40,767 nucleotides of DNA, taken from the IMG/VR virus record IMGVR_UViG_3300025164_001366, positions 1-40,767 of that record; one strand, written 5' to 3'. The position numbers and the translations under genes were made by a program. The notes below the pieces were generated by a model. The model had not been told where the DNA came from and ran no database searches. It saw nothing but the letters and a program-made list of their open reading frames with translations. Positions 463 to 35,350 of the stretch are shown one piece after another; the stretch's first letter is position 1, and each line of letters begins with the position of its first letter. Origin of the DNA: a virus.

Positions 463-1737
463 TTATTGTAAAGCTTTAATAAATCCTGAAATTTCGGATT
501 TGTTAATAAGAACCACAATAGAATCACCAAATTTTCTAACAGATTGCCATTTTGTTTCGTTTATCTCTTGTAGTTTTAAGTTTTTTCCATTGTTATTATA
601 TGTCCATCCGGATTTTATTTCTATTTGTTTTCCTCTAAATGAAAAATCCGTGTGATAAACATGTTGCTTTTCTTCAAAAATATAATCATAACTTTTACCA
701 TTAGTTACCTCATTTAATAAGCCTTTTTCTTCAAGAAGCTCGAGAAAGTATTTTTCATAGGAACCTTGGTAGGTTATTTCTGTGTCTTTGTATTTATGTA
801 TTCGAAGTCCAGATAAATGATTTTTTTCTAAAACCTCTTTTAATTTCATTGGATGGTCTACTCCATATTTCTTTAAATTATTTTTTTTTCTTTTATCCTT
901 AACCTCATCTAAGCTCATTGGATTGTATGTTCCATATTTTTCAAAAATAACTTCTTTTCCTTTGTCTCTGACTTCTTTAAATGCGAGATGTGATGTTACT
1001 CCATATTTTTCTAAATTAGTATCTTTTATTTTTGTTTTTATTTCTTCATTTTGAGTAATGAATTTAACTCCATATCGTTCTAAATTAGTTTCTTGAGCTT
1101 TTATCTTTATTTCTTCATTTTGCAAAGCAAACCTAACTCCATATCGTTCTAAATTAGTTTCTTGTTGCTTTTGTTGAAAATTTTCATTTTGAATAGCATA
1201 ATCTACACCATATAACTCATTCATTGTTCTAACAGCTTGTTCTCTGTTATTATAATTTTCATCTCCATATAATTCTTTTTTTGAAATATTTCCTTTCTGC
1301 CTAATCTCAATTGACTGTAAAGAATATTCAACTCCATATTTTTCTAAACAAGTTTCTTTTGATTTGTTTTTAACTTCTTCACTTTGACATGGACTTTCTG
1401 TTCCATATCTTTCTATGTTTGTTATTTTTATTTTTTCTTTTACATCATCAAGTTGTAAAGTGCTTTTAACACCATATTTTTTAATTACAGCCTCTTCTGT
1501 TTTTTTCATTCTGTTTGCTCTGTTTTCTGGAATTTTATCATACTCTTGTCTACAAACATCAGAACACATTGTTTTTTCAGTTATTTTTTTAACTTCAAAT
1601 ATTTTACTACACATTATACAAGTTCGCTCTTCTCTGTTATTTTTCTTTTTAAGTTCATCAGAACATTTTCTGGAACACGTTTTTTGTTCTTGCGGTTTTT
1701 CAAAATCACAATTACAGTTTATACAAATTAATTTCAT
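463..1737 (-). CDS. PD-(D/E)XK homing endonuclease with zinc-finger and 'ERYGV' repeats
   Basis: About 424 aa from the Met at 1737; an alternative ATG lies 7 codons upstream at 1758. The N-terminus has two Cys4-type zinc motifs (CINCNCDF...CSRKC and CIMC...CSDVC). The middle is a tandem series of units of about 25 residues built on '(L/I)ERYGV....Q.EE(I/V)K.K...TN', at least nine copies, probably a modular DNA-reading region. The C-terminus carries a PD-(D/E)XK-like nuclease core: GSYEKYFLELLEEKG, then HTDFSFRGKQIEIKSGWTY. The same nuclease core ends the proteins at 33566-35350 and, more divergently, 18892-19743 and 30246-31280. It sits directly downstream of the tail sheath gene, behind the sheath terminator, as expected for a homing gene placed beside a conserved virion gene. 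Homing function is inferred from family and setting. Confidence 0.75.
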   Translation of the reverse strand: MKLICINCNCDFEKPQEQKTCSRKCSDELKKKNNREERTCIMCSKIFEVKKITEKTMCSDVCRQEYDKIPENRANRMKKTEEAVIKKYGVKSTLQLDDVKEKIKITNIERYGTESPCQSEEVKNKSKETCLEKYGVEYSLQSIEIRQKGNISKKELYGDENYNNREQAVRTMNELYGVDYAIQNENFQQKQQETNLERYGVRFALQNEEIKIKAQETNLERYGVKFITQNEEIKTKIKDTNLEKYGVTSHLAFKEVRDKGKEVIFEKYGTYNPMSLDEVKDKRKKNNLKKYGVDHPMKLKEVLEKNHLSGLRIHKYKDTEITYQGSYEKYFLELLEEKGLLNEVTNGKSYDYIFEEKQHVYHTDFSFRGKQIEIKSGWTYNNNGKNLKLQEINETKWQSVRKFGDSIVVLINKSEISGFIKALQ

Positions 1738-1827
1738 ATATTCAATTTTAACCAACACATATTGTTGTATTTGTAAATATGATTAAATTTTTAAAAAAGT
1801 AAATAATTATTTTTTTAATAATAAAAA

Positions 1828-5417: not shown

Positions 5418-6101
5418 ATGAAAACAAATATTAATTTAATAAAATTATTTATAGACAGCGATATCATTAGACATTATGCTGTTTTTCTTAAATTAAAACA
5501 TATTCACTCTAATGGTAGAGTTTATAACTACTCACCCTATAAACTATCAAAACAAAGCGGATTAAGTAGAAATTCAATAATAAAATATATCAAATTCTTT
5601 AAAGATAATAACTGGATAAGAACCGAAGGGAAGGATATTATTTTCATTTCAACTGAAAAATTAAAAAAAGTTTATGATATCAAATTAAAACATGATATTA
5701 AAATAGAAAACAATAACACTTTATCTTTACTTACAAACTCTTTACGATATGAAGTATTAAAACATAAACAAAGTCAATTTAAGTACATTAATCAAATTAG
5801 GAAAGACCAAACTAATCCAACAGGAGCTAATGCTTTAAAACGCCATAAAAAAGCTATTAAAGTACCTCTGAAAACATTCGGTGAATTTTCTAATTATTTA
5901 AAAATTAGTGTAAAAAAATTGGCTTTGTTAATTAATAAATCAGGCTCAACAGTTAGTCGTTTGATTAAAATTATGAAAGCAACAGTAATCAGGGGCAAGA
6001 AAACTTTGGTATATTTTAAAAAGAATATAAATTTACCTTCAAATTTATACTGGCATAAAGGTTTTGTAGTTAAAGTTGATTGTAATTCATATATTTTTTA
6101 A
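5418..6101 (+). CDS. Winged-helix DNA-binding protein
   Basis: 227 aa, basic. An N-terminal helix-turn-helix is visible at about residues 40-75: YSPYKLSKQSGLSRNSIIKY followed by IKFFKDNNWIRTEGKDIIFIS, a typical winged-helix recognition helix and wing. A second HTH-like stretch is LKISVKKLALLINKSGSTVSR near residue 160. It resembles Bacteroidetes plasmid or phage replication/regulatory wHTH proteins but I cannot name a family. It is a lone plus-strand gene inserted between gp15-like and gp14-like genes, so it may be a recent insertion or a regulator with its own promoter. The 163 nt after it (6102-6264) hold no ORF or hairpin that I can support. Confidence 0.65.
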   Translation: MKTNINLIKLFIDSDIIRHYAVFLKLKHIHSNGRVYNYSPYKLSKQSGLSRNSIIKYIKFFKDNNWIRTEGKDIIFISTEKLKKVYDIKLKHDIKIENNNTLSLLTNSLRYEVLKHKQSQFKYINQIRKDQTNPTGANALKRHKKAIKVPLKTFGEFSNYLKISVKKLALLINKSGSTVSRLIKIMKATVIRGKKTLVYFKKNINLPSNLYWHKGFVVKVDCNSYIF

Positions 6102-6264
6102 CTATGTCTTTTTATGCATACTAATTAAATCCATACAGCTTATAGCTTTAACTATGGTTTTAGTAATTGGAATATTGGATTAGGTTAAATTTTAAACAAG
6201 AGTTGTAATAATAACGAATTTTATTTATAAACAGAAATTAAATATGTCATTATGTCAGAATTAA

Positions 6265-6804
6265 TTATTTTGCATTGAAAACATCATCCTTAACTCTAAT
6301 TCCTATTATTTTTATTGAAAACACTATATCTCCAGCATAAGATTGTTCGTTTCCAATGTTTGAAGAGCCATCATCTATTATTTCGTAAAAATGTCCTTTA
6401 AAGTACATAAAATCTCCTATTTTTGGATTTGCATTTAATTCATTTAAATGACTTCTATAAACATCGGCAGTAATTTTTCCATAACCTTTTTTAATTAGTC
6501 CACCTGAAGCCATATATTCTGGAGATTCAACTTCTACGTTAATTCTACCGAATACTTCAATCGGAGTTTTATAAGCTTTCTTTTTAGCTTCTCCATAAAG
6601 TTTATGTGTGTTTGTTTTAGCATAATCTATTTTATAAAGAACAAAACTTTCCTTAATAATATCATTTACCAATTCTCTTCCTACAGTATCAAAGAATTCC
6701 CTTTCTTTTTCTCCAAAGAATAAATCAATACCTTTCCTTGAAACATCTTGTTCTTTTGCTTCTTCAGGTTTTTTATCACCATCATTGTAAGGAGGATTTG
6801 CCAT
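6265..6804 (-). CDS. Neck / head-completion protein (T4 gp14-like)
   Basis: 179 aa. The middle and C-terminal pattern fits T4-like gp14 neck proteins: KLYGEAKKKAYKTPIEVFG, then a domain ending NPKIGDFMYFKGHFYEIID (compare 'GDLIYFP...LFEI' in T4), followed by SYAGDIVFSIKIIGIRV. It is shorter than T4 gp14 (256 aa). The N-terminus is Pro/Lys-rich and probably disordered. Its gene lies immediately downstream of the gp13-like gene with a 17-nt gap, the same order as T4 genes 13 and 14. It should act at the head-tail joint. Some other head-closure protein is the main alternative. Confidence 0.6.
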   Translation of the reverse strand: MANPPYNDGDKKPEEAKEQDVSRKGIDLFFGEKEREFFDTVGRELVNDIIKESFVLYKIDYAKTNTHKLYGEAKKKAYKTPIEVFGRINVEVESPEYMASGGLIKKGYGKITADVYRSHLNELNANPKIGDFMYFKGHFYEIIDDGSSNIGNEQSYAGDIVFSIKIIGIRVKDDVFNAK

Positions 6805-6821
6805 GATTTAATTGATTTTAA

Positions 6822-8000
6822 TTAGCCTCTCCATATCCCAAGAGGACTATAGATGAATGTTTTATTTATACTATCTTGAATAGATGCATTATTTTCAAGT
6901 ATTGCTTTGTAGTTTAATTTTCCTAATGTGTCTTTTAATTCTTCTCTTAATGCAGTCATATCTTCTCTTCCATTTGATATTAAAGAATCAGCATTAAGAG
7001 TAACTTCTGCACCTGGAATAGGAACAGTACTAAATTTTCCTCTTATTCCAAGTCCTAACAGTTCTTTTGCCATGGCTTGTGCAAATCTTTTAACCCATCT
7101 TTTAGCTGGATCATTAAGTTCAGCATATGACAAATTGTAAAGTTGAGCATCAGAAGGACCAGAAACTAACCCATTTCCTTGACTTTCTTGACCTAATGAA
7201 TTTGTTCCTCCAGTATAATTTGGATTAGCAGTAAAACCTGAAAGTTCACTATTACCACCAACACCAACCGTATCATAATAATAATATAGTACACTACCGG
7301 GAGTAGCAAAACCAGGACTAATATATCCGGAATTAGCAGGCATTTTAGGAATTGGATAAAGTGTTAACTTTTTGGTTCCATTTGGACCACCTACAATTTT
7401 ATAAGAATACTCAGAACCTCTTACTTTATTTCTTACCGTAGCAGCTTGGGCAGTTAAAAATGTATCATAAATAGGCATTACAGAATATAAATTATATCCG
7501 GCAAAACTAGCTCCAAATTCTGTATAAGCAATATTTGAATTTGATAAAGGGTCTAAACCATATAAGTTAATATAACTTGGAGTATACCACATTACTTCAT
7601 TTATTTCTCTACCATTTTCTATAAAATAGTTTTGAGTTCCGGCAGATAATGTAATAACAGCAACTTTAAGTTCTCTTAAAGAAGTTGATGAATTTCCTAC
7701 CAAATCTGAATAAGCCCTTGCAAATGTTCTTTCAAAACCAAAATTATTAGAAACAAATTTTAATGTAAAATCAATATTTTTTGGTAAACCAAGCATTTGA
7801 GACATTTTATTCTCTAATGACCAATTGTTGATAAATGAAGAATACTCTTCAATTGCCTCTTCGACACATTCCTGCAATTGTTCATCACGCAATTCAACGT
7901 TCATAACAGGTTCACCAAGCTTTCTTCGTATTCTACGATAAAGTCTGGCAACATCACTGCTACTCATTCCTGATAACGGATTCTCTGACGTAATTTCCAT
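6822..8000 (-). CDS. Neck protein (T4 gp13-like)
   Basis: 392 aa. The N-terminus RRIRRKLGEPVMNVELRDEQ and the helix LQECVEEAIEEYSSF match the T4 gp13 pattern '[33 protein letters not shown]'. The C-terminal part also matches: KRWVKRFAQAMAKELLGLGIRGKF, then VTLNADSLISNGREDMTALREEL, ending YSPLGIWRG (T4 ends PPFGILVG). Gp13 binds gp14 to seal the packaged head and make the tail attachment site. The extra 80 residues relative to T4 are in a Gly/Asn/Ser-rich middle around residues 235-290. It belongs to the neck-tail cluster on the minus strand. Confidence 0.87.
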   Translation of the reverse strand: MEITSENPLSGMSSSDVARLYRRIRRKLGEPVMNVELRDEQLQECVEEAIEEYSSFINNWSLENKMSQMLGLPKNIDFTLKFVSNNFGFERTFARAYSDLVGNSSTSLRELKVAVITLSAGTQNYFIENGREINEVMWYTPSYINLYGLDPLSNSNIAYTEFGASFAGYNLYSVMPIYDTFLTAQAATVRNKVRGSEYSYKIVGGPNGTKKLTLYPIPKMPANSGYISPGFATPGSVLYYYYDTVGVGGNSELSGFTANPNYTGGTNSLGQESQGNGLVSGPSDAQLYNLSYAELNDPAKRWVKRFAQAMAKELLGLGIRGKFSTVPIPGAEVTLNADSLISNGREDMTALREELKDTLGKLNYKAILENNASIQDSINKTFIYSPLGIWRG

Positions 8001-21395: not shown

Positions 21396-22874
21396 TTAAT
21401 CATTTTTTATTTCCATTTCATACCGAAATTTGCCACAGTCCCAGATTCTATCATAACCAAGTTCTTGCATCATTTCCCATTCGGTTTTATCCGGATTATA
21501 AACTTCTGGAAATTTTTTCTTTATAGAGTTTTTTCCGAAACCGAATTTGTGTAGTCTTCTATTCCTCGATACTTTTGGATTGAAATATTTATAATCCGGC
21601 CCGATTATTTCCTTACAAATAAATCCAAGTTTAGTATATAAATTTTCATCGTTTATTGTTGTGGTTTTATCTGCAAAGCTTATTATTTTTTTAGGATTAT
21701 TATTTTTAATAAAATATTTCAGTAACTTACTAGCAATACCTGGAATTCTGCAATCTATTTTTGTCGCAAATCTTTTTAATTCACACTCTCCTTCAACTAT
21801 ATTTTTTATAGACATGTGTCTATTTGAATCAAAAGTCATAACAGCAACTAAATCATCGTTATTATAAGCTCCTAAATGAATGTTTGACATATCTTCTCCT
21901 TGAATGTGATTTTTGTTTAAAAATTCATTTTTTAAAGTAGGGTTTATTTCTTTAATAATACATTTTCTTGCGTGAATGATGATGTTTTTATTTAAACCAA
22001 GTAAGTGTCTAAGTTTGGATTTTACTATATCTTTTTTTTGAATCCAATCATCTTCAAAAATATGTATTAATAAATAACCATTTTCATTAGTTTGTTTAGT
22101 TTTATTTAAATGATAGCTACGAGATTTTTTACCATATATCTCTGAATGATATAGTAAACCATTATATTCGATGGCTATTTTTTTGTCAGGAATTAAAATA
22201 TCTAATTCAATTCCTTTTAATAAACTTTTATTATTCACTTCATAATTTAATCCTAATTCAAATAAAAAATCATTAATTTCTTTATGTCCAGATGATGTAA
22301 AATTACTTTTAATAAATTTTAAATTTTCTTCATATTGTTTTATACAATTTTGTCTAGCAAATTCACTTAATGTTTCAGTCGAAAAATTGAGTTTATATTC
22401 AAATAATGAAAGATTATGAGTTTTTAAGTGACTATTGGTAATTTTTTTTAATTTCTCATTACACACTTTACAAATAATATAGTTATCTTCTGAGGAATTT
22501 ATAAAATCTTTTAGCTCTTTTTTATTAAAAAATGTATTAAATAGATTTTTTTCTTCTGGATATTCTTCAACATACTGTATAATATCTTTGTTGTGTTTAT
22601 CTTTTAAATGCAACGTGTATTGACCGCTTTTATTATCTAAATCAACAGTTGTCCAATCACAATATTTACATTTTTTAATTTCTTTGTCTACTGTTTCAAA
22701 AACGTCAAAAAATTGCATATGCCACATTTGACCATTTTTTTTTAGAAACTGTCTTCTTAAAAATGAGGTTGGAACATTTATATTTAAGCTATTAAGATGT
22801 TCTGCTATACATCCGCTTTTATTTTCTAAGTCTCCAAATTCTTTACCGGTTGTTTTACATCGTATTTTTTTCAT
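21396..22874 (-). CDS. Vsr-like homing endonuclease with N-terminal zinc modules
   Basis: 492 aa from the ATG at 22874. The N-terminal half has three MucR-like Cys/His modules, each recognising 'CK.C' and 'HL...H': CKTTGKEF...HLNSL, CKYCDWTT...HLKDKH, and CKVCNEKL...HLKTH. The nuclease domain follows at about residues 205-300: EINDFLFELGLNYEVNNKSL, then ELDILIPDKKIAIEYNGLLY with HSE, and LLIHIFEDDWIQK. This is the EDxHD/Vsr-type fold of phage homing endonucleases. A C-terminal acetyltransferase-like or DNA-binding region ends in WEMMQELGYDRIWDCGKF, also seen at 3-98. It is the gene downstream of the major capsid gene terminator, a common homing site. Confidence 0.85.
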   Translation of the reverse strand: MKKIRCKTTGKEFGDLENKSGCIAEHLNSLNINVPTSFLRRQFLKKNGQMWHMQFFDVFETVDKEIKKCKYCDWTTVDLDNKSGQYTLHLKDKHNKDIIQYVEEYPEEKNLFNTFFNKKELKDFINSSEDNYIICKVCNEKLKKITNSHLKTHNLSLFEYKLNFSTETLSEFARQNCIKQYEENLKFIKSNFTSSGHKEINDFLFELGLNYEVNNKSLLKGIELDILIPDKKIAIEYNGLLYHSEIYGKKSRSYHLNKTKQTNENGYLLIHIFEDDWIQKKDIVKSKLRHLLGLNKNIIIHARKCIIKEINPTLKNEFLNKNHIQGEDMSNIHLGAYNNDDLVAVMTFDSNRHMSIKNIVEGECELKRFATKIDCRIPGIASKLLKYFIKNNNPKKIISFADKTTTINDENLYTKLGFICKEIIGPDYKYFNPKVSRNRRLHKFGFGKNSIKKKFPEVYNPDKTEWEMMQELGYDRIWDCGKFRYEMEIKND

Positions 22875-22934
22875 ACTTGTAAATATATAACAAATTTTCA
22901 AAATTCCAAACTTTGGAGTTAAATAATATTAAAT

Positions 22935-28716: not shown

Positions 28717-30201
28717 ATGGAAAGATGTAGTTGTAAAAATGATGGATGTTTACATAGAAAACCTATGGTACACTTGCATTTACATAGTTCGTATAGCTTA
28801 CTCGATGGTTCCGCGAAGATAGACGATTACGTAAGTTTAGCGAAGGATTACCATCATCCTGCTATAACTTTAATTGACCACGGTCATGCATCTGGTACAT
28901 TTGAATTTTATAATAAATGTAAAGCTGCTGGAATTAAGCCGATAATTGGAATGGAAGCTTATCTGAATGATGAAATGGATAAACATGAAGAAAAATCCTA
29001 TGAGGGGAAAGATACTCATCAATCAATTATTATAATGAATAAAGAAGGGTTTGTTAATTTAAATAAATTAACTTATCGTTCTTTCACAGAAGGGTATTAT
29101 CGTAGGGGCAGAATAACAACAGAATGGCTTATTGAGAATAAGTCCGGACTTTTGATTACGAGCAGTTGTATGGCCAGTAAAATGGCAAGGTTAATAGAAG
29201 AAGGCAAGGAACAAGAAGCAGAAGAAAGAATAAAACTTTTAATGCGAGAATTTGGAAACAATTTTGTGGCAGAATTACAATTTAATGAAATCCCTCAACA
29301 AAAAAAATATAATCATTTTATTTTAAGAATGATTAAAAAATATTCATTAACACCAATACTTACAGGTGATGTTCACTATTCGAGTCCTGAAAATAATCGT
29401 TTACAGGATGTGATTATTTCCATTAATCAACATAAGTCTGTAGATGACCCTACAGCATTTAAACTTCAAGCACGACATCTGTATTATTCTAATAGAGATG
29501 ATTTTTATAAAATGAATAAAGAATTTGGATATAATTATCCGGATAAATTTATTGAAGAATGTTTAGATAACACTTTAAAAGTTGCTGATAAATGTAATTT
29601 TGAGTTTGAAACGGATGTAGAGAAATTTCCAAAATACGAGCCAACACCGGATGTTATTGAGTATTTTAAAGAAACAGGAACTAAGGAAATAATAACAAAA
29701 CTTGCACATGCAAAATTAAAACAAAAATTAAACATTTATAAAAAAAATGGTTTAGTAAAAATTGATGATGAAGTTATTCAAAAATATAAGGACAGGCTTG
29801 ATTACGAACTAAAAGTAATTGACGATAAAAAAGTGTCTGATTATTTTATGGTTGTTTGGGAATTAATTAAGTTTTGTAAGGAAAATGATATAGCCACAGG
29901 ACCTGGAAGAGGATGTTTTTTGCCAGGAAGTAGAGTAAAAATGTCTAATGGATTATATTCTTCTATAGAAATAATAGATATAGGAGAAGAAGTGATAGAT
30001 GCTTATGGAAATAAGCAAACAGTAATAGATGTTTTGTCTTATGACATAGAAGAAGATATTGTTGAATTAGAATTTGAAAACAAAATAAAAATAAGATGCA
30101 CATTAGACCATGAGTTTCTAACAAGTAATAGAAGTTGGGTTAAAGCAAATGATTTAACTAATGAAGATGAAATTATGGAAGTAGATTATTTACCGACTTA
30201 G
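28717..30201 (+). CDS. dnaE: DNA polymerase III alpha subunit, N-terminal part fused to split-intein N half
   Basis: 494 aa. Residues 1-399 are the N-extein: a PHP domain (VHLHLHSSYSLLDG, LIDHGHASGTFEFYNKC, GIKPIIGMEAYL) and the beginning of the palm, up to ATGPGRG. Residue 400 starts the intein: CFLPGSRVKMSNGLYSS, block A with Cys1, then block B IRCTLDHEFLTS with the TxxH motif, ending EVDYLPT and a stop (95 intein residues, 29914-30198). The stop occurs where natural DnaE split inteins end (compare 'VDNLPN'). The insertion point is within the strictly conserved PGRG|SA motif of Pol III. The second half lies at 31285-33561. Splicing would give a 1122-residue polymerase, about normal for DnaE. 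Confidence 0.95.
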   Translation: MERCSCKNDGCLHRKPMVHLHLHSSYSLLDGSAKIDDYVSLAKDYHHPAITLIDHGHASGTFEFYNKCKAAGIKPIIGMEAYLNDEMDKHEEKSYEGKDTHQSIIIMNKEGFVNLNKLTYRSFTEGYYRRGRITTEWLIENKSGLLITSSCMASKMARLIEEGKEQEAEERIKLLMREFGNNFVAELQFNEIPQQKKYNHFILRMIKKYSLTPILTGDVHYSSPENNRLQDVIISINQHKSVDDPTAFKLQARHLYYSNRDDFYKMNKEFGYNYPDKFIEECLDNTLKVADKCNFEFETDVEKFPKYEPTPDVIEYFKETGTKEIITKLAHAKLKQKLNIYKKNGLVKIDDEVIQKYKDRLDYELKVIDDKKVSDYFMVVWELIKFCKENDIATGPGRGCFLPGSRVKMSNGLYSSIEIIDIGEEVIDAYGNKQTVIDVLSYDIEEDIVELEFENKIKIRCTLDHEFLTSNRSWVKANDLTNEDEIMEVDYLPT

Positions 30202-30245
30202 TCCAATAAGGATTTTTTTTGACTATTTACAGTAAATATAAAGTC

Positions 30246-31280
30246 ATGAAAAAAGAAATAACAAAAGAACAAAAAGAAATATTAAATGTCATTATTAATA
30301 AAAATGGATTTTTAACAAAAAATGAAATATTAAAATTTTCCAAAGAATTTAATATTAACTTAAAATTATTTAGAAAATTATTAAAAGAAAGTAAAATTCC
30401 ATTTAAAAATAGAGATTTAGAAAATTTATTAAATGCCTATGATATAAAGTCTATAAATAACAGAATAGAATTAAGTGATTTTATTGCTTTAGGAGAATGG
30501 AAAATAGAAGCGTTTAAAAGTTCCAAAATGAAAATAACTTTTTGTTGTGAAGCTTGTAATAAAAAAAGTGAATTAGCATGTAGAAATATTATAAAAAGAG
30601 ATTATTTTTCACTCGAACCAATTTGTAATAAATGCATAAATAAAAAAGTAACATCATCTCTTAATTGGTTAAAAAATACTTCTGTTGCACAAAAAATATG
30701 TAAAAATAGACCAGAATTCAAAGAAAATCAAAGCAAAAAAATGATAGAAGTTTGGAAAAAAGATGGTTATAAAGAAAATCAGAGTAATAAAATGTTGGAA
30801 AAATGGCAAGATGAAAATTATAGACAAAATATTTTGGATGCTGTTTTTGAAAAATATGGAGTTTATAGTGTTATGCAAAATGAAAAAATTTTTTCAAAAT
30901 CACAAAAAAATAGCTTTAAATTTAAAGAATATATAATGCCAAGTGGAAAAATTATAAAACTGCAAGGGTATGAAAATAAGGCTTTAGATATTTTATTAAA
31001 AGAATTTAAAGAAGAAGATTTGATAATTGGCAATAAAAACATACAAAATAAAATAGGAAAAATATTTTATACAGACATAGATAACATTGTAAGAAGATAT
31101 TTTCCAGATATATACATTATCTCAATAAATAAAATAATTGAAGTAAAATCCACTTGGATATATAATAAATGTAAAATTAATAACGATTTTAAGAAACAAG
31201 AATGTTTGGATAGAGGATTTAATTTTGATTTTATGATTTTCCTACACAAAATGACACTTGAATATGTAAAAACATTATAA
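30246..31280 (+). CDS. Free-standing PD-(D/E)XK homing endonuclease between split-intein halves
   Basis: 344 aa from the ATG at 30246. It has its own start and stop and is not in frame with either intein half. An N-terminal helical region is followed by zinc-like Cys pairs (CCEACNKK...CNKC), short repeats with AVFEKYGVYSVMQNEKIFSK as in the 463-1737 and 33566-35350 proteins, and a C-terminal nuclease core: KLQGYENKALDILLKEFKEE, then IDNIVRRYFPDIYIISINKI with IEVKSTWIYN (D, E-x-K). The arrangement matches the published 'fractured gene' design in which a homing endonuclease gene separates the two halves of a split intein. It ends 4 nt before the intein C half start. Function in intein mobility is inferred. 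Confidence 0.85.
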   Translation: MKKEITKEQKEILNVIINKNGFLTKNEILKFSKEFNINLKLFRKLLKESKIPFKNRDLENLLNAYDIKSINNRIELSDFIALGEWKIEAFKSSKMKITFCCEACNKKSELACRNIIKRDYFSLEPICNKCINKKVTSSLNWLKNTSVAQKICKNRPEFKENQSKKMIEVWKKDGYKENQSNKMLEKWQDENYRQNILDAVFEKYGVYSVMQNEKIFSKSQKNSFKFKEYIMPSGKIIKLQGYENKALDILLKEFKEEDLIIGNKNIQNKIGKIFYTDIDNIVRRYFPDIYIISINKIIEVKSTWIYNKCKINNDFKKQECLDRGFNFDFMIFLHKMTLEYVKTL

Positions 31281-31284
31281 TAAT

Positions 31285-33561
31285 ATGAAATTAAAATCAA
31301 AAAATATAATTAAATATAAAGGTAGAGTTCACGATTTAACAGTAGAAAATTCTCACTCTTACAATGTTGAAAGTTTAGGAGTTCATAATTCTGCATCTGG
31401 TTGTTTATTATCATACTGTCTTGATATAACAAAAATAGACCCTCTTCGTTTTGGTTTATATTTTGAAAGATTTTTAAACACAAAAAGGAAATCGATTCCT
31501 GATATCGATATCGATTTTGAAACAGGTTCAGATGCAAAAACATTACAATTTTTGTATGATAAATATGGAAAAGAAAGAGTTATACCGGTAATTACTTTTG
31601 GCACTTTTAATGAAAAAGGATGTATAAAAGATGTGGTTAAAGCTCTCGGAGGGGAATCTGGGTTTGAGTCAGATGTTTTTGCTGTAACAAGAGAAATGCC
31701 AACGAAACCGACTTGGGATATTTCTTTACAAGAATGGTTCGAAACATGGCCAAATGACCCACAGTGCTCAGAAAGAGTTAAAAACTGGTTAACTTCTCCA
31801 GATAATGCAGAAATATTAAGTATTACTCTAAAACTTCAAGGACAAATAAGGAATTTAGGAAAGCATGCTGCTGGTATTGTTATTACGCCCGGACCAGTTT
31901 GGGATTATATGCCAGTTAATATTTGTAAAGGTCAAATAGTTTCAGGTTATCAAGAATCTGGAAGTGGAAAGGATTTATCTTCTCTTGGTATTTTAAAATT
32001 AGACAGATTAAATTTAACTACTCTTAATGTTATAAAATCAGCAATAAAACTTGTAAAAGAAAACAAAGGAATAGACATACAGGAGCAAGTTGATTATGTG
32101 AATCTTGAAGACCCAAATCTTTTTATAGAACTTAGAATGGGTAATAATCAAGGGATTTTTCAATTTGAATCTGAGGGAATGAATGCTTTAATAAAAGGAA
32201 TTCAGATTGAAACATTTGAAGAATTAACAGCAGCAAATTCATTATATAGACCTGGAAGTCTTGGAATGGGAGCTCATATTGAATTTATACAAAATAAATT
32301 CAATCCAGAAAAAAAAACATATGTACATGAACTTTTAGCTCCATTATTAGAAGAAACTAATGGTGTACTAATTTATCAAGAACAACTAATGTTTATTGCT
32401 AAGGAAATTGGTGGAATGGATGAAGGAGATGGTGATAACTTAAGAAAATATATGGACTCAGCTAGTAAAATAATTGCAAAAAAATTACGTGGAGACATAT
32501 TAACAGAAGATGAATTAAAAAATAAAAATTATAAAAATTATATTGATTTGTGGAAAAAATTCATAGACGGAGCAAAAACAAAGGGTTTATCTGAAGAAGA
32601 AGTAACTAAAATAGAAGACTGGTTAATTAAATATTTGGGATATTCGTTCAATAAATCACATGCAACTTCATATAGCTACATAGCTATGCAAACCCTTTTT
32701 TTAAAACACTATTATCCGACTGAATTCTATACAGCACTTTTAAATCACCCTAAAAGTAATAGCGATAAAGAAAAAGAAAAACAATGGTTACAAGCTGCAC
32801 TTCTTTCTGCTATGTCTAAAGGGATTGAAATTGCCCCTCCTGTAAGAAAATCTAATTGGGAATGGACATCAATTGAAAATAAAAAAATTGCAATGGGATT
32901 TTCTGGAATAAATGGAATGGGAGATATTGCATTTAAAGAATTAAAAGCCAAAAATATAGGAACGTTAACGAGGGATGAGTTTTTCTCGGTACCTTTTAAA
33001 AAATTTAATAAAGGCAGTTTTGAAGCGTGTTTAAAAGCTGGACTATTTGATGATTGGTCACCATCCAGAGAGGAAATTATGGCATGGAGAACTGCGAAAG
33101 TAAAAAACGTTATGCAATTAGATATATTTGGAAATTTTGGAATGGATTCTGTTACTGTTTATAAGAAATTTAATAAAACTCCAGATGATATAAAGCAAAA
33201 AGAATTTTTAGAAGTTTGTAATCTTGATCTCGGTTTACTCAAAAAACTGCATGAACTCAGAGATGCTTTTGTTGAAGAATATGGAGTAGCGTTAGAGCCG
33301 GTAACAAATTTTGATAATCCTATTAATTATTATTATTTCTGTTTAAATAATGTAGAACAAAAATTAACTAAAACAGGAAGAAAAATGTATGTATTACACT
33401 TATCCGATGGGGCTACAGTTAAAAAAGTTATTATGTGGGATAATATGTATAAAAAACTTGAGTCAAAGCTTAAGAATAATAGTGTTTATGTGACTAAATT
33501 TAAAAAAGAAAAAGGATGGTTATCTTTTGATGGAAGTGCTGAATTTAGAAAAGTGTTTTAA
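31285..33561 (+). CDS. dnaE: DNA polymerase III alpha subunit, C-terminal part with split-intein C half
   Basis: 758 aa. Residues 1-35 are the intein C half: MKLKSKNIIKYKGRVHDLTV, block F ENSHSYNVESLG, ending VHN with the penultimate His and terminal Asn; the first C-extein residue is Ser. The C-extein continues SASGCLLSYCLDITKIDPLR and the catalytic palm IPDIDIDFETG (the DxD pair binding metal). Next come QIRNLGKHAAGIVITPGP, the conserved FQFESEGMNALI and ANSLYRPGSLGMG, and IYQEQLMFIAKEIGGMDEGD. A Pol III fingers/HhH region and a C-terminal OB-like part with VEQKLTKTGRKMYVLHLSDG follow. It acts only after trans-splicing with the 28717 product. Replicative polymerase of the phage. Confidence 0.95.
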   Translation: MKLKSKNIIKYKGRVHDLTVENSHSYNVESLGVHNSASGCLLSYCLDITKIDPLRFGLYFERFLNTKRKSIPDIDIDFETGSDAKTLQFLYDKYGKERVIPVITFGTFNEKGCIKDVVKALGGESGFESDVFAVTREMPTKPTWDISLQEWFETWPNDPQCSERVKNWLTSPDNAEILSITLKLQGQIRNLGKHAAGIVITPGPVWDYMPVNICKGQIVSGYQESGSGKDLSSLGILKLDRLNLTTLNVIKSAIKLVKENKGIDIQEQVDYVNLEDPNLFIELRMGNNQGIFQFESEGMNALIKGIQIETFEELTAANSLYRPGSLGMGAHIEFIQNKFNPEKKTYVHELLAPLLEETNGVLIYQEQLMFIAKEIGGMDEGDGDNLRKYMDSASKIIAKKLRGDILTEDELKNKNYKNYIDLWKKFIDGAKTKGLSEEEVTKIEDWLIKYLGYSFNKSHATSYSYIAMQTLFLKHYYPTEFYTALLNHPKSNSDKEKEKQWLQAALLSAMSKGIEIAPPVRKSNWEWTSIENKKIAMGFSGINGMGDIAFKELKAKNIGTLTRDEFFSVPFKKFNKGSFEACLKAGLFDDWSPSREEIMAWRTAKVKNVMQLDIFGNFGMDSVTVYKKFNKTPDDIKQKEFLEVCNLDLGLLKKLHELRDAFVEEYGVALEPVTNFDNPINYYYFCLNNVEQKLTKTGRKMYVLHLSDGATVKKVIMWDNMYKKLESKLKNNSVYVTKFKKEKGWLSFDGSAEFRKVF

Positions 33562-33565
33562 AATG

Positions 33566-35350
33566 TTACGATTTTACTTCCGAATTTTTATTTAATGTTT
33601 GTGCAATTGTTGTAACATATTCTAAGATTTTTATTTTTTTATCATCATCTATTATAATATCTATTTCCATACCACACTCTCTTACGGATTGCCATTTTGC
33701 TTCATTTTTCAGTCCTTTTTTAATATCTTTCCCTTTACTATCATATGTCCATACTGACTTTATTTCAATTATTCTTTCTTTAAACAAAAAATCAGAATAA
33801 TATGTAGTAATTTTATTTTCCCATTTATATTTGAAACTTGGACCTCTTTTAATTTCATTTAACAGTCCTGCATTTTCCATTAGTTCTAAAAAATATAATT
33901 CATATTTACCTTGATAATTTAAAGAGGTATCTTTGTATTTATACATTTTAAAGCCATTTTTCTGACTTCTCTCGAAAATATTTTGATTATGCATGACATT
34001 TTCTACTCCATATCTTTCTATGTTTGTTATTTTACTTTTATTATGCTTAACACAAGATGCGTCCGCACATTTTTTAGAACAATATATTCCAAGTTTTGAC
34101 GAATTTGACCAAGAAACTGGATTTTTTTCACATGTTAAACACTTAGGAAACTCTTTTATGTTTTTGGAAATTAATAAACTTCTGCCAACCATAGATATTT
34201 TATTTGGAAAATTTTTGGTCATTTCTAAAATTTTATCTTTTAAATCAAGACGGAATTTTTCTGTAAAAAAATTAAGAACATTTTCATGAATATGATTTTT
34301 GCCGTTAATAATAAAAGTGTTAATAAATAACTTAACTTCATCAAAAGTTTGAATTTTATAAGATATGGAATAAAATAATTTTATTATATCTATATCATAA
34401 TTATTGTGACCAAACATAAAGTTTTTACGATGTCGCAAAAAATTAAATTTAAATTCCGGGTTTTGTTTTTTGTATTTATTGAACTTTTTTTGAGAAAAAT
34501 TATATAATTTATTTTTTAAAATAATATCAACAATCTCTGAAATATTCATAATTTTAAATGATGATAATGTTTTTAATTTGGTTATATTTATTTTATTCTG
34601 CGTTTCTTTTAATTGTAAAACATTTTCAACTCCATATTTTTCAATACAGGTTTCTTTAGCCTGCTCTCTATTGTTGTAATTTTCATCTCCAAAATTTTCT
34701 AATTTTGTTTGTTTAACTTTATCTGCAAATCCAGGTATATGAGATATGTGATTAACTCCATATTTATTTATAATAGTTACTTTGCTTTTTTCTGTATTAG
34801 TATAATGTCCATTGTTATATAATTTTAGTTTAGTGTCAAACGTTTTTTGTGCCCTGCCATCAGAATTATAAGCACATTCCTTAGAACAGTATATTCCTAT
34901 CTTTGATTGAAAATAATATACTGGTTTAATTCCGCAATGCAAACATGTAGGAAATGTTTTTATATTTTGAATTATCATCGAACATCTTACAACATTAACA
35001 ATATCAGATGGATAATTATTTGTGAATTTAATTATTTGAGGTAAAATTTTTTCATTAATTTTTGAAATTAATGTTAACTTTTCGAAACTCACATCTCTTT
35101 TTTTGTTTGTTAAAAATTTTTTTATAAAAATCTGTAAATCTTCAAATGTTTCTAAAGAATAATTCAATGAATTTATAACATAAATATAATCATATGCACC
35201 ATGATTTTTAAAACAATTTAAGTCAATAAATATTTTTCTTAATGATTTATGAAATTCTTTATTAAGCAAAGTGTATTGTTTAACTTCTTTTTTATTTAAT
35301 TTATCTAAATTTTCTATTGATATTTTTTGTGCTAATTCCTGTATGTCCAT
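33566..35350 (-). CDS. Large PD-(D/E)XK homing endonuclease with duplicated zinc modules
   Basis: 594 aa. The protein has two repeats of the same unit. Each holds a helical region and a zinc module, TFPTCLHCGIKPVYYFQSKI-GIYCSKECA and EFPKCLTCEKNPVSWSNSSK-LGIYCSKKCA, and each is followed by KYGV-type repeats (EKYGVENVLQLKETQ, ERYGVENVMHNQNIFERSQ). The C-terminal nuclease domain is close to that at 463-1737: LNYQGKYELYFLELMENAGL, TYYSDFLFKERIIEIKSVWT, then NEAKWQSVREC. It converges on dnaE with only 4 nt between the stop codons, a typical homing position beside a conserved gene. Confidence 0.82.
   Translation of the reverse strand: MDIQELAQKISIENLDKLNKKEVKQYTLLNKEFHKSLRKIFIDLNCFKNHGAYDYIYVINSLNYSLETFEDLQIFIKKFLTNKKRDVSFEKLTLISKINEKILPQIIKFTNNYPSDIVNVVRCSMIIQNIKTFPTCLHCGIKPVYYFQSKIGIYCSKECAYNSDGRAQKTFDTKLKLYNNGHYTNTEKSKVTIINKYGVNHISHIPGFADKVKQTKLENFGDENYNNREQAKETCIEKYGVENVLQLKETQNKINITKLKTLSSFKIMNISEIVDIILKNKLYNFSQKKFNKYKKQNPEFKFNFLRHRKNFMFGHNNYDIDIIKLFYSISYKIQTFDEVKLFINTFIINGKNHIHENVLNFFTEKFRLDLKDKILEMTKNFPNKISMVGRSLLISKNIKEFPKCLTCEKNPVSWSNSSKLGIYCSKKCADASCVKHNKSKITNIERYGVENVMHNQNIFERSQKNGFKMYKYKDTSLNYQGKYELYFLELMENAGLLNEIKRGPSFKYKWENKITTYYSDFLFKERIIEIKSVWTYDSKGKDIKKGLKNEAKWQSVRECGMEIDIIIDDDKKIKILEYVTTIAQTLNKNSEVKS

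What the first reader, a model, noticed from the sequence alone, without database searches (positions are those of the whole stretch)
28717..33561. Fractured dnaE: split intein with a free homing endonuclease between halves
N-extein ends PGRG, then a 95-residue intein N half starting CFLPG and a stop; a 35-residue intein C half ending VHN is followed by Ser of the C-extein (SASG). A separate PD-(D/E)XK endonuclease gene lies between. This matches the 'fractured gene' architecture with split inteins described from marine metagenomes (Dassa and colleagues). The split is at the catalytic PGRGSA motif, so no active polymerase forms without splicing.
Basis: partly seen in the sequence, partly recalled or inferred. 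Interest (0 to 1): 0.75.

Follow-up and report, generated by a model that had tools for sequence, protein, structure and literature searches.

The report
Phage polymerase split by mobile element
A phage's DNA-copying enzyme is encoded in two pieces, each ending in half of a self-splicing protein element, with a separate DNA-cutting gene between them; relatives in other phages show how such genes get broken and how they stay broken after the cutting gene is lost.

Summary
The dnaE gene is broken at PGRG|SASG. The N part ends in a 95-residue intein N half and a stop. The C part starts with a 35-residue intein C half ending VHN. A free-standing endonuclease gene lies between, in another frame. 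Intein catalytic residues are intact, and an unsplit cousin of this intein models as a HINT fold. The reading 'fractured gene with split intein and homing endonuclease' is well supported, but splicing and cutting are inferred.

The IMG/VR survey adds more. The same split intein occurs at this dnaE site in 31 locus clusters, window included, across very different DnaEs. The nuclease gene keeps one fixed frame relative to the C half in all 18 clusters with an intact PD-ExK nuclease and usually overlaps its start. The two dnaE halves have no fixed frame. HEG-less splits mostly keep the HEG's 3' tail, and L192 differs from a sister by a clean HEG deletion. Window-like dnaEs are broken at up to three active-site motifs, each site with its own HEG class; L023 is in four pieces with HEG remnants in all three gaps.

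It is a variant of a described arrangement (Dassa 2009, not readable here). Its main value is a graded series from empty site to permanently split gene.

The parts
28717..29913 (+). dnaE N-extein: PHP domain and start of the polymerase domain, ending ...TGPGRG
   Evidence: Pfam PHP 2.6e-37, DNA_pol3_alpha 6.8e-14; NCBIfam polc family
29914..30198 (+). intein N half, 95 aa (C1, TLDH block B), stop TAG at 30199-30201
   Evidence: 30 of 30 aligned sequences share C1 and TxxH
30246..31280 (+). free-standing putative homing endonuclease, 344 aa: Cys-rich N-terminal part, then a YFPD-(x)n-IIEVK nuclease motif
   Evidence: DUF7487 3.3e-36; motif nearly invariant in alignment A6 of 18 site-a HEGs; 10 of 18 match Phage_endo_I and 11 of 18 TnsA-N
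31285..31389 (+). intein C half, 35 aa, own ATG, 4 nt after the HEG stop; ends VHN
   Evidence: IntC profile 91 bits
31390..33561 (+). dnaE C-extein starting SASG, with PDIDIDF catalytic motif, finger and HhH domains
   Evidence: Pfam DNA_pol3_alpha 1.3e-45, finger 5.8e-40, HHH_6 8e-7

Best explanation
The phage makes DnaE as two separate polypeptides. The intein halves find each other, fold into one HINT domain and trans-splice, joining ...PGRG to SASG... into one polymerase (inferred). The nuclease between them is a homing endonuclease that cuts intein-free dnaE at or near PGRG|S, so that repair copies the whole cassette (intein N half, HEG, intein C half) into that allele (inferred from distribution). 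The split halves share one ancestral HEG frame and start-stop overlap and have moved between distant DnaEs. When the HEG decays or is deleted the gene stays split, because the C half already has its own start and the halves still splice.
For: Shown by sequence: both halves with intact catalytic residues (30 of 30 sequences, window included, have C1, TxxH, F-block Asp, HN; 29 of 30 have +1 Ser, 1 has Cys). An unsplit natural cousin, L149, models at pLDDT 87 and matches gp41-1, NrdJ-1 and Npu DnaE inteins by fold. Intein identity exceeds N-extein identity in 423 of 435 pairs and C-extein identity in 336 of 435; L187 against L194: exteins 0.41-0.42, inteins 0.87. Occupancy is scattered: 8 occupied of 51 rows need 8 changes on the extein tree, 6 forced by supported branches. 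HEG frame to intein C half is constant in 18 of 18 PD-ExK clusters, while N-half to C-half frame is 8/10/8 over 26 split clusters (hand tally). HEG dN/dS is 0.08-0.12 in three relative pairs. HEG deletion: L192 against L189. HEG 3' tails persist in 7 of 8 HEG-less or HEG-broken cases, weakly in L194. Site c: L145 and L160 agree at 99.95% over 9,925 nt, then differ by presence of the split intein, with four synonymous changes in the last four codons before it, as co-conversion would leave.
Against: No splicing or cutting has been measured. The window has no close +/- relative at this site; its nearest empty relatives are about 72% identical in DNA. The HEG model has a low-confidence nuclease half and no Foldseek match at E<=0.001. 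Short conserved inteins may simply evolve more slowly than the variable N-extein, so the identity excess is not proof of transfer. Most loci are metagenome assemblies. The window's HEG lacks the overlap with the C half seen in the other 17 of 18 intact PD-ExK clusters.
Confidence: 0.87

Rival explanations
1. The halves do not need splicing: they assemble non-covalently into a working polymerase, as reported for phage Aeh1 NrdA split by mobE, and the intein halves are relics.
For: Aeh1 precedent (PMC3653736 passages).
Against: All catalytic intein residues are conserved in 30 of 30 sequences and dN/dS of the intein N half is 0.07-0.10 in four pairs, one of which includes L192, which has lost its HEG; relics would decay. 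The break lies at a polymerase motif, not a linker.
Confidence: 0.06
2. RNA-level joining: the gap is an intron and the intein is translated whole from spliced mRNA.
For: In the window the two halves happen to be in the same frame.
Against: No Rfam match in 29600-31800 at E<=1. N-to-C frame varies 8/10/8 over 26 split clusters, these C halves have their own start codon, and in the window the HEG ends 4 nt before it.
Confidence: 0.02
3. The nuclease is an ordinary free-standing phage HEG that landed in the gap of an older split intein and has no role in moving it.
For: The window carries other HEG-like genes, one directly downstream of dnaE; L230/L231 carry an HNH gene at the same split point, so different HEGs can land there.
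Against: Each of the three dnaE split sites has its own HEG class, and 18 PD-ExK clusters keep one HEG-to-IntC frame, 17 of them with an overlap, which points to one ancestral insertion.
Confidence: 0.1

Closest known systems
Fractured genes with split inteins and free-standing endonuclease (Dassa et al. 2009, NAR 37:2560; recalled, paper not held)
   Same: Enzyme gene broken by a split intein, endonuclease gene between the halves, DNA-synthesis enzyme, phage
   Different: Nuclease here is PD-ExK/DUF7487-like, not the Vsr-like family reported (recalled) in half of those loci; this gene family has three fracture sites and HEG-loss stages. I could not check whether dnaE is among their loci.
Pseudomonas phage MIJ3 split PolB with HNH gene between halves (PMC6892783, passages read)
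   Same: Phage replicative polymerase, split intein, endonuclease ORF between
   Different: PolB not DnaE, HNH not PD-ExK
Cyanobacterial split DnaE inteins (Ssp, Npu)
   Same: DnaE made in two pieces and trans-spliced; no HEG, like L192, L204, L207
   Different: Other insertion site (recalled: near SFNKSH, close to site c here) and halves at distant loci
Bacillus phage G gp329 and Lactococcus phages 949/P1048 dnaE inteins
   Same: Intein at the same PGRG|S site
   Different: Both intein ends lie in one ORF (cis intein), not split

Membership tests
Fractured genes (Dassa 2009; defining features recalled) | Conserved enzyme coding region broken in two, halves fused to intein N and C parts | tested here: met
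Fractured genes (Dassa 2009; defining features recalled) | Free-standing endonuclease ORF between the halves | tested here: met
   30246-31280, separate frame and start; nuclease motif and family; activity not tested
Fractured genes (Dassa 2009; defining features recalled) | Trans-splicing of the halves | not testable with these tools
   catalytic residues intact but no assay
Class 1 intein | C1, block B TxxH, block F Asp, terminal HN, +1 S/T/C | tested here: met
   window and 29 relatives
Class 1 intein | HINT fold | tested here: met
   model of the unsplit cousin L149, not of the window halves:
PD-(D/E)XK nuclease | PD...(D/E)xK catalytic motif | tested here: met
   YFPD...IIEVK, near-invariant in A6
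PD-(D/E)XK nuclease | Restriction-endonuclease-like fold | tested here: inconclusive
   AF2 nuclease part of low confidence, no Foldseek hit at E<=0.001; profile to T7 endonuclease I E=0.0076
Homing endonuclease | Cuts the intein-free allele at the insertion site | not testable with these tools
   only distribution and +/- alleles
Cyanobacterial split DnaE intein | Insertion at the cyanobacterial site (recalled), halves at distant loci | tested here: not met
   site is PGRG|S, halves 1.1 kb apart
Group I/II intron | Intron RNA structure in the gap | tested here: not met
   no Rfam match E<=1

The most novel reading that the evidence does not exclude
A mobile cassette of split intein plus PD-ExK nuclease, with the nuclease's stop overlapping the C half's start, has repeatedly invaded the catalytic motif of phage DnaE. 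Because the C half is born with its own start, loss of the nuclease leaves the polymerase permanently split. Stacking three such cassettes of different classes yields a replicative polymerase made from four polypeptides by three trans-splicing reactions (L023). This is a sequence-level record of how split genes such as cyanobacterial dnaE could arise.
Probability: 0.6. Interest if true: 0.75.

Novelty: new variant of a known kind. Interest (0 to 1): 0.6.

Why it matters
It gives a graded series (empty site; unsplit mini-intein; split with intact nuclease; split with broken nuclease; split with only the nuclease's 3' tail) at one site of one essential enzyme, so the proposed route from homing element to permanently split gene becomes testable. 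It also offers a set of natural split inteins from one protein, 25-34% identical to each other in L023, of use for multi-part protein assembly.

Tried and rejected
RNA intron: no Rfam match. Stop read-through: 41 in-frame stops in the gap, and TAG is followed in frame by TGA at 30220. Promoter/terminator scan: found about as many sites as shuffles. PDB fold search with the HEG model: no match at E<=0.001, top rows are cofilins at prob about 0.1, taken as uninformative. First intein alignment A7 placed C halves wrongly and was not used; A8 replaced it. HEG profile scan of viral contigs gave only 5 loci. IntN scan of genome contigs gave one MAG locus, L241, not followed. No cultured-phage record matched the L221 HEG; the window HEG matched 4 records by its C-terminal part. 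The window's intein N half matched 12 phage records only partly, in other genes where annotated.

Rows dropped or corrected: of 54 loci I used 44; L227-L229, L232-L234 and L237-L240 were dropped because they are not at this dnaE site or match weakly. The script called L111 empty and L115 unknown at site a; both were recoded occupied. L150 site b was added by hand. L226 has no intein C half within reach and L193 ends at the contig end, so both are undetermined.

Literature: Dassa 2009 could not be read and is cited from recall. Eight searches listed no paper that I could recognise as describing split inteins at this phage dnaE site; this does not exclude it being in Dassa 2009 or in papers not held.

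Full report
What is there. The window is a 40,767-base virus record with a gp23-type capsid gene, tail sheath and prohead protease. dnaE is in two ORFs on the + strand. The N half (ATG 28717 to TAG 30199-30201) carries PHP and the start of the polymerase domain, ends PGRG, then 95 residues of intein N half. The C half (31285-33561) begins with 35 residues of intein C half ending VHN, then SASG and the rest of the polymerase. Between them is a 344-aa ORF (30246-31280) in another frame. Its best Pfam match is DUF7487 (3.3e-36).

Intein. C1, the TLDH block, the F-block Asp, the terminal HN and Ser+1 are present, as in all 29 aligned relatives except that one has Cys+1. One relative, L149, has the same intein unsplit; its model (mean pLDDT 87) matches solved inteins including gp41-1, NrdJ-1 and Npu DnaE. 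A profile of the N halves finds the NrdJ-1 intein in the PDB by sequence (E=1.1e-9).

Nuclease. In 18 aligned site-a nucleases (one a contig-end fragment without this part) the motif YxPD...(I/V)E(I/V)K is near-invariant. Phage_endo_I (T7 endonuclease I family) matches 10 of 18 and TnsA-N 11 of 18 at E<=0.01. The PDB profile match to T7 endonuclease I is weak (E=0.0076). The AF2 model is confident in the N-terminal half only, and the fold search was uninformative. PD-(D/E)XK is therefore supported by motif and family, not by fold.

Empty sites and three break sites. Of 50 related dnaE locus groups (92 loci) 7 are occupied at this site (a) and 43 empty, after two hand corrections. The same genes have a site b (between NPxR and PDIDIDF), split in 12 of 50 groups, and a site c (FN[KR]|S before the HS motif), split in 4 groups plus L145 and unsplit in 3; some contigs end before b or c. 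Intact HEGs at site b (10 of the 12) share a GDYWHC[NH] motif, which I recall as Vsr/EDxHD-like; Pfam gives only weak hits (two of them scanned). Intact HEGs at site c (L034, L114, L166) are a third type, with a weak NUMOD3 match in L166 and no Pfam match in L034. The two site-b HEGs scanned also match DUF7487 weakly over their middle part, so the classes may share a DNA-binding module. L023 is broken at a, b and c; the gaps contain nuclease remnants, so its DnaE needs three joins. Its three inteins are 25-34% identical to each other.

Wider survey of site a. An intein N-half scan of IMG/VR gave 54 loci; 44 at this dnaE site plus the window form 31 clusters. Of these, 19 have an intact nuclease ORF (18 with the PD...ExK pattern, plus L215), 3 a broken one (L187, L188, L209), 4 none (L194, L200, L204, L207), 1 is unsplit (L208, same contig as L149), 2 are fusions (L212: nuclease fused to the intein N half; L230: HNH nuclease fused to the intein C half) and 2 are undetermined (L193, L226). 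L215's site lies one residue further on.

Frame evidence. In the 18 PD-ExK clusters the nuclease stop lies 14-41 nt inside the C half in 17 and 4 nt before it in the window; all 18 offsets are the same modulo 3. Between N and C halves the frame is 8/10/8 over 26 split clusters (hand tally). The C half must therefore be started on its own, and the nuclease and C half look inherited as one unit from one ancestral fracture. The clusters are related, so this is not a probability.

Loss of the nuclease. L192 and L189 are 97-99% identical around the gene; L192 lacks 1,015 bp that hold nearly the whole nuclease and keeps its last codons. The tail is also visible in L204, L207, L187, L188 and L209, weakly in L194, and not in L200. 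At site b, L153 lacks 1,011 bp of the nuclease present in near-identical L152, L154 and L166; this may be a strain variant or an assembly error. In all these cases the split intein stays.

Gain. L145 and L160/L146 agree at 99.95% over 9,925 nt up to site c, where L145 has a split intein and the others an empty site; the last four codons before the insertion differ by one synonymous base each. That pattern fits co-conversion during homing. L145 ends before the intein C half, so the other flank cannot be seen.

Horizontal spread. Intein identity is a median 0.56 against 0.25 for N-exteins and 0.41 for the first 100 C-extein residues; it exceeds them in 423 and 336 of 435 pairs. On the extein tree the 8 occupied of 51 rows need 8 changes, no fewer than shuffled labels. 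Slow intein evolution could explain part of the excess, but not L187 against L194 (0.41-0.42 against 0.87).

Selection. In three relative pairs nuclease dN/dS is 0.08-0.12, and in four pairs that of the intein N half is 0.07-0.10. No close relative of the window's own nuclease was found, so its selection is untested.

Judgement. The kind is known (fractured genes; MIJ3 PolB, PMC6892783 passages). New here, as far as eight searches and passages of citing papers show, are the fixed coupling of nuclease and C half, three break sites with separate nuclease classes in one polymerase, and alleles that record gain and loss. Splicing, cutting and homing are inferred, not measured.

Noticed in passing
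window 33566-35350 (-): Second DUF7487 nuclease-like gene directly downstream of and convergent to dnaE; its C-terminal part is 32% identical to the HEG in the gap.
   Followed up: partly
window 463-1758 (-), 21396-22901 (-): Further HEG-like genes (phrog_3339); the second lies beside the gp23 capsid gene.
   Followed up: no
L156 8578-10389: A GmrSD (DUF262) restriction-like gene sits with the HEG inside the split dnaE gap at site b: possible defence cargo.
   Followed up: partly
L225 5133-5705: An MT-A70 methyltransferase gene sits with the HEG inside the split dnaE gap at site a.
   Followed up: partly
L212 7001-8128; L230 7281-8054: Nuclease fused in frame to the intein N half (L212), and an HNH nuclease fused to the intein C half (L230), at the same dnaE site.
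   Followed up: partly
L003 (JN638751.1) locus 6014-7796: Phage G dnaE has a further interruption near site b with a gene annotated homing endonuclease (gp330) after it; may be an intron.
   Followed up: no
HQ331142.1 105313-105597 and similar Salmonella/Proteus phages: Intein-N-like stretch spanning the end of an ATP-dependent helicase gene (uvsW in some records) and the next ORF.
   Followed up: no
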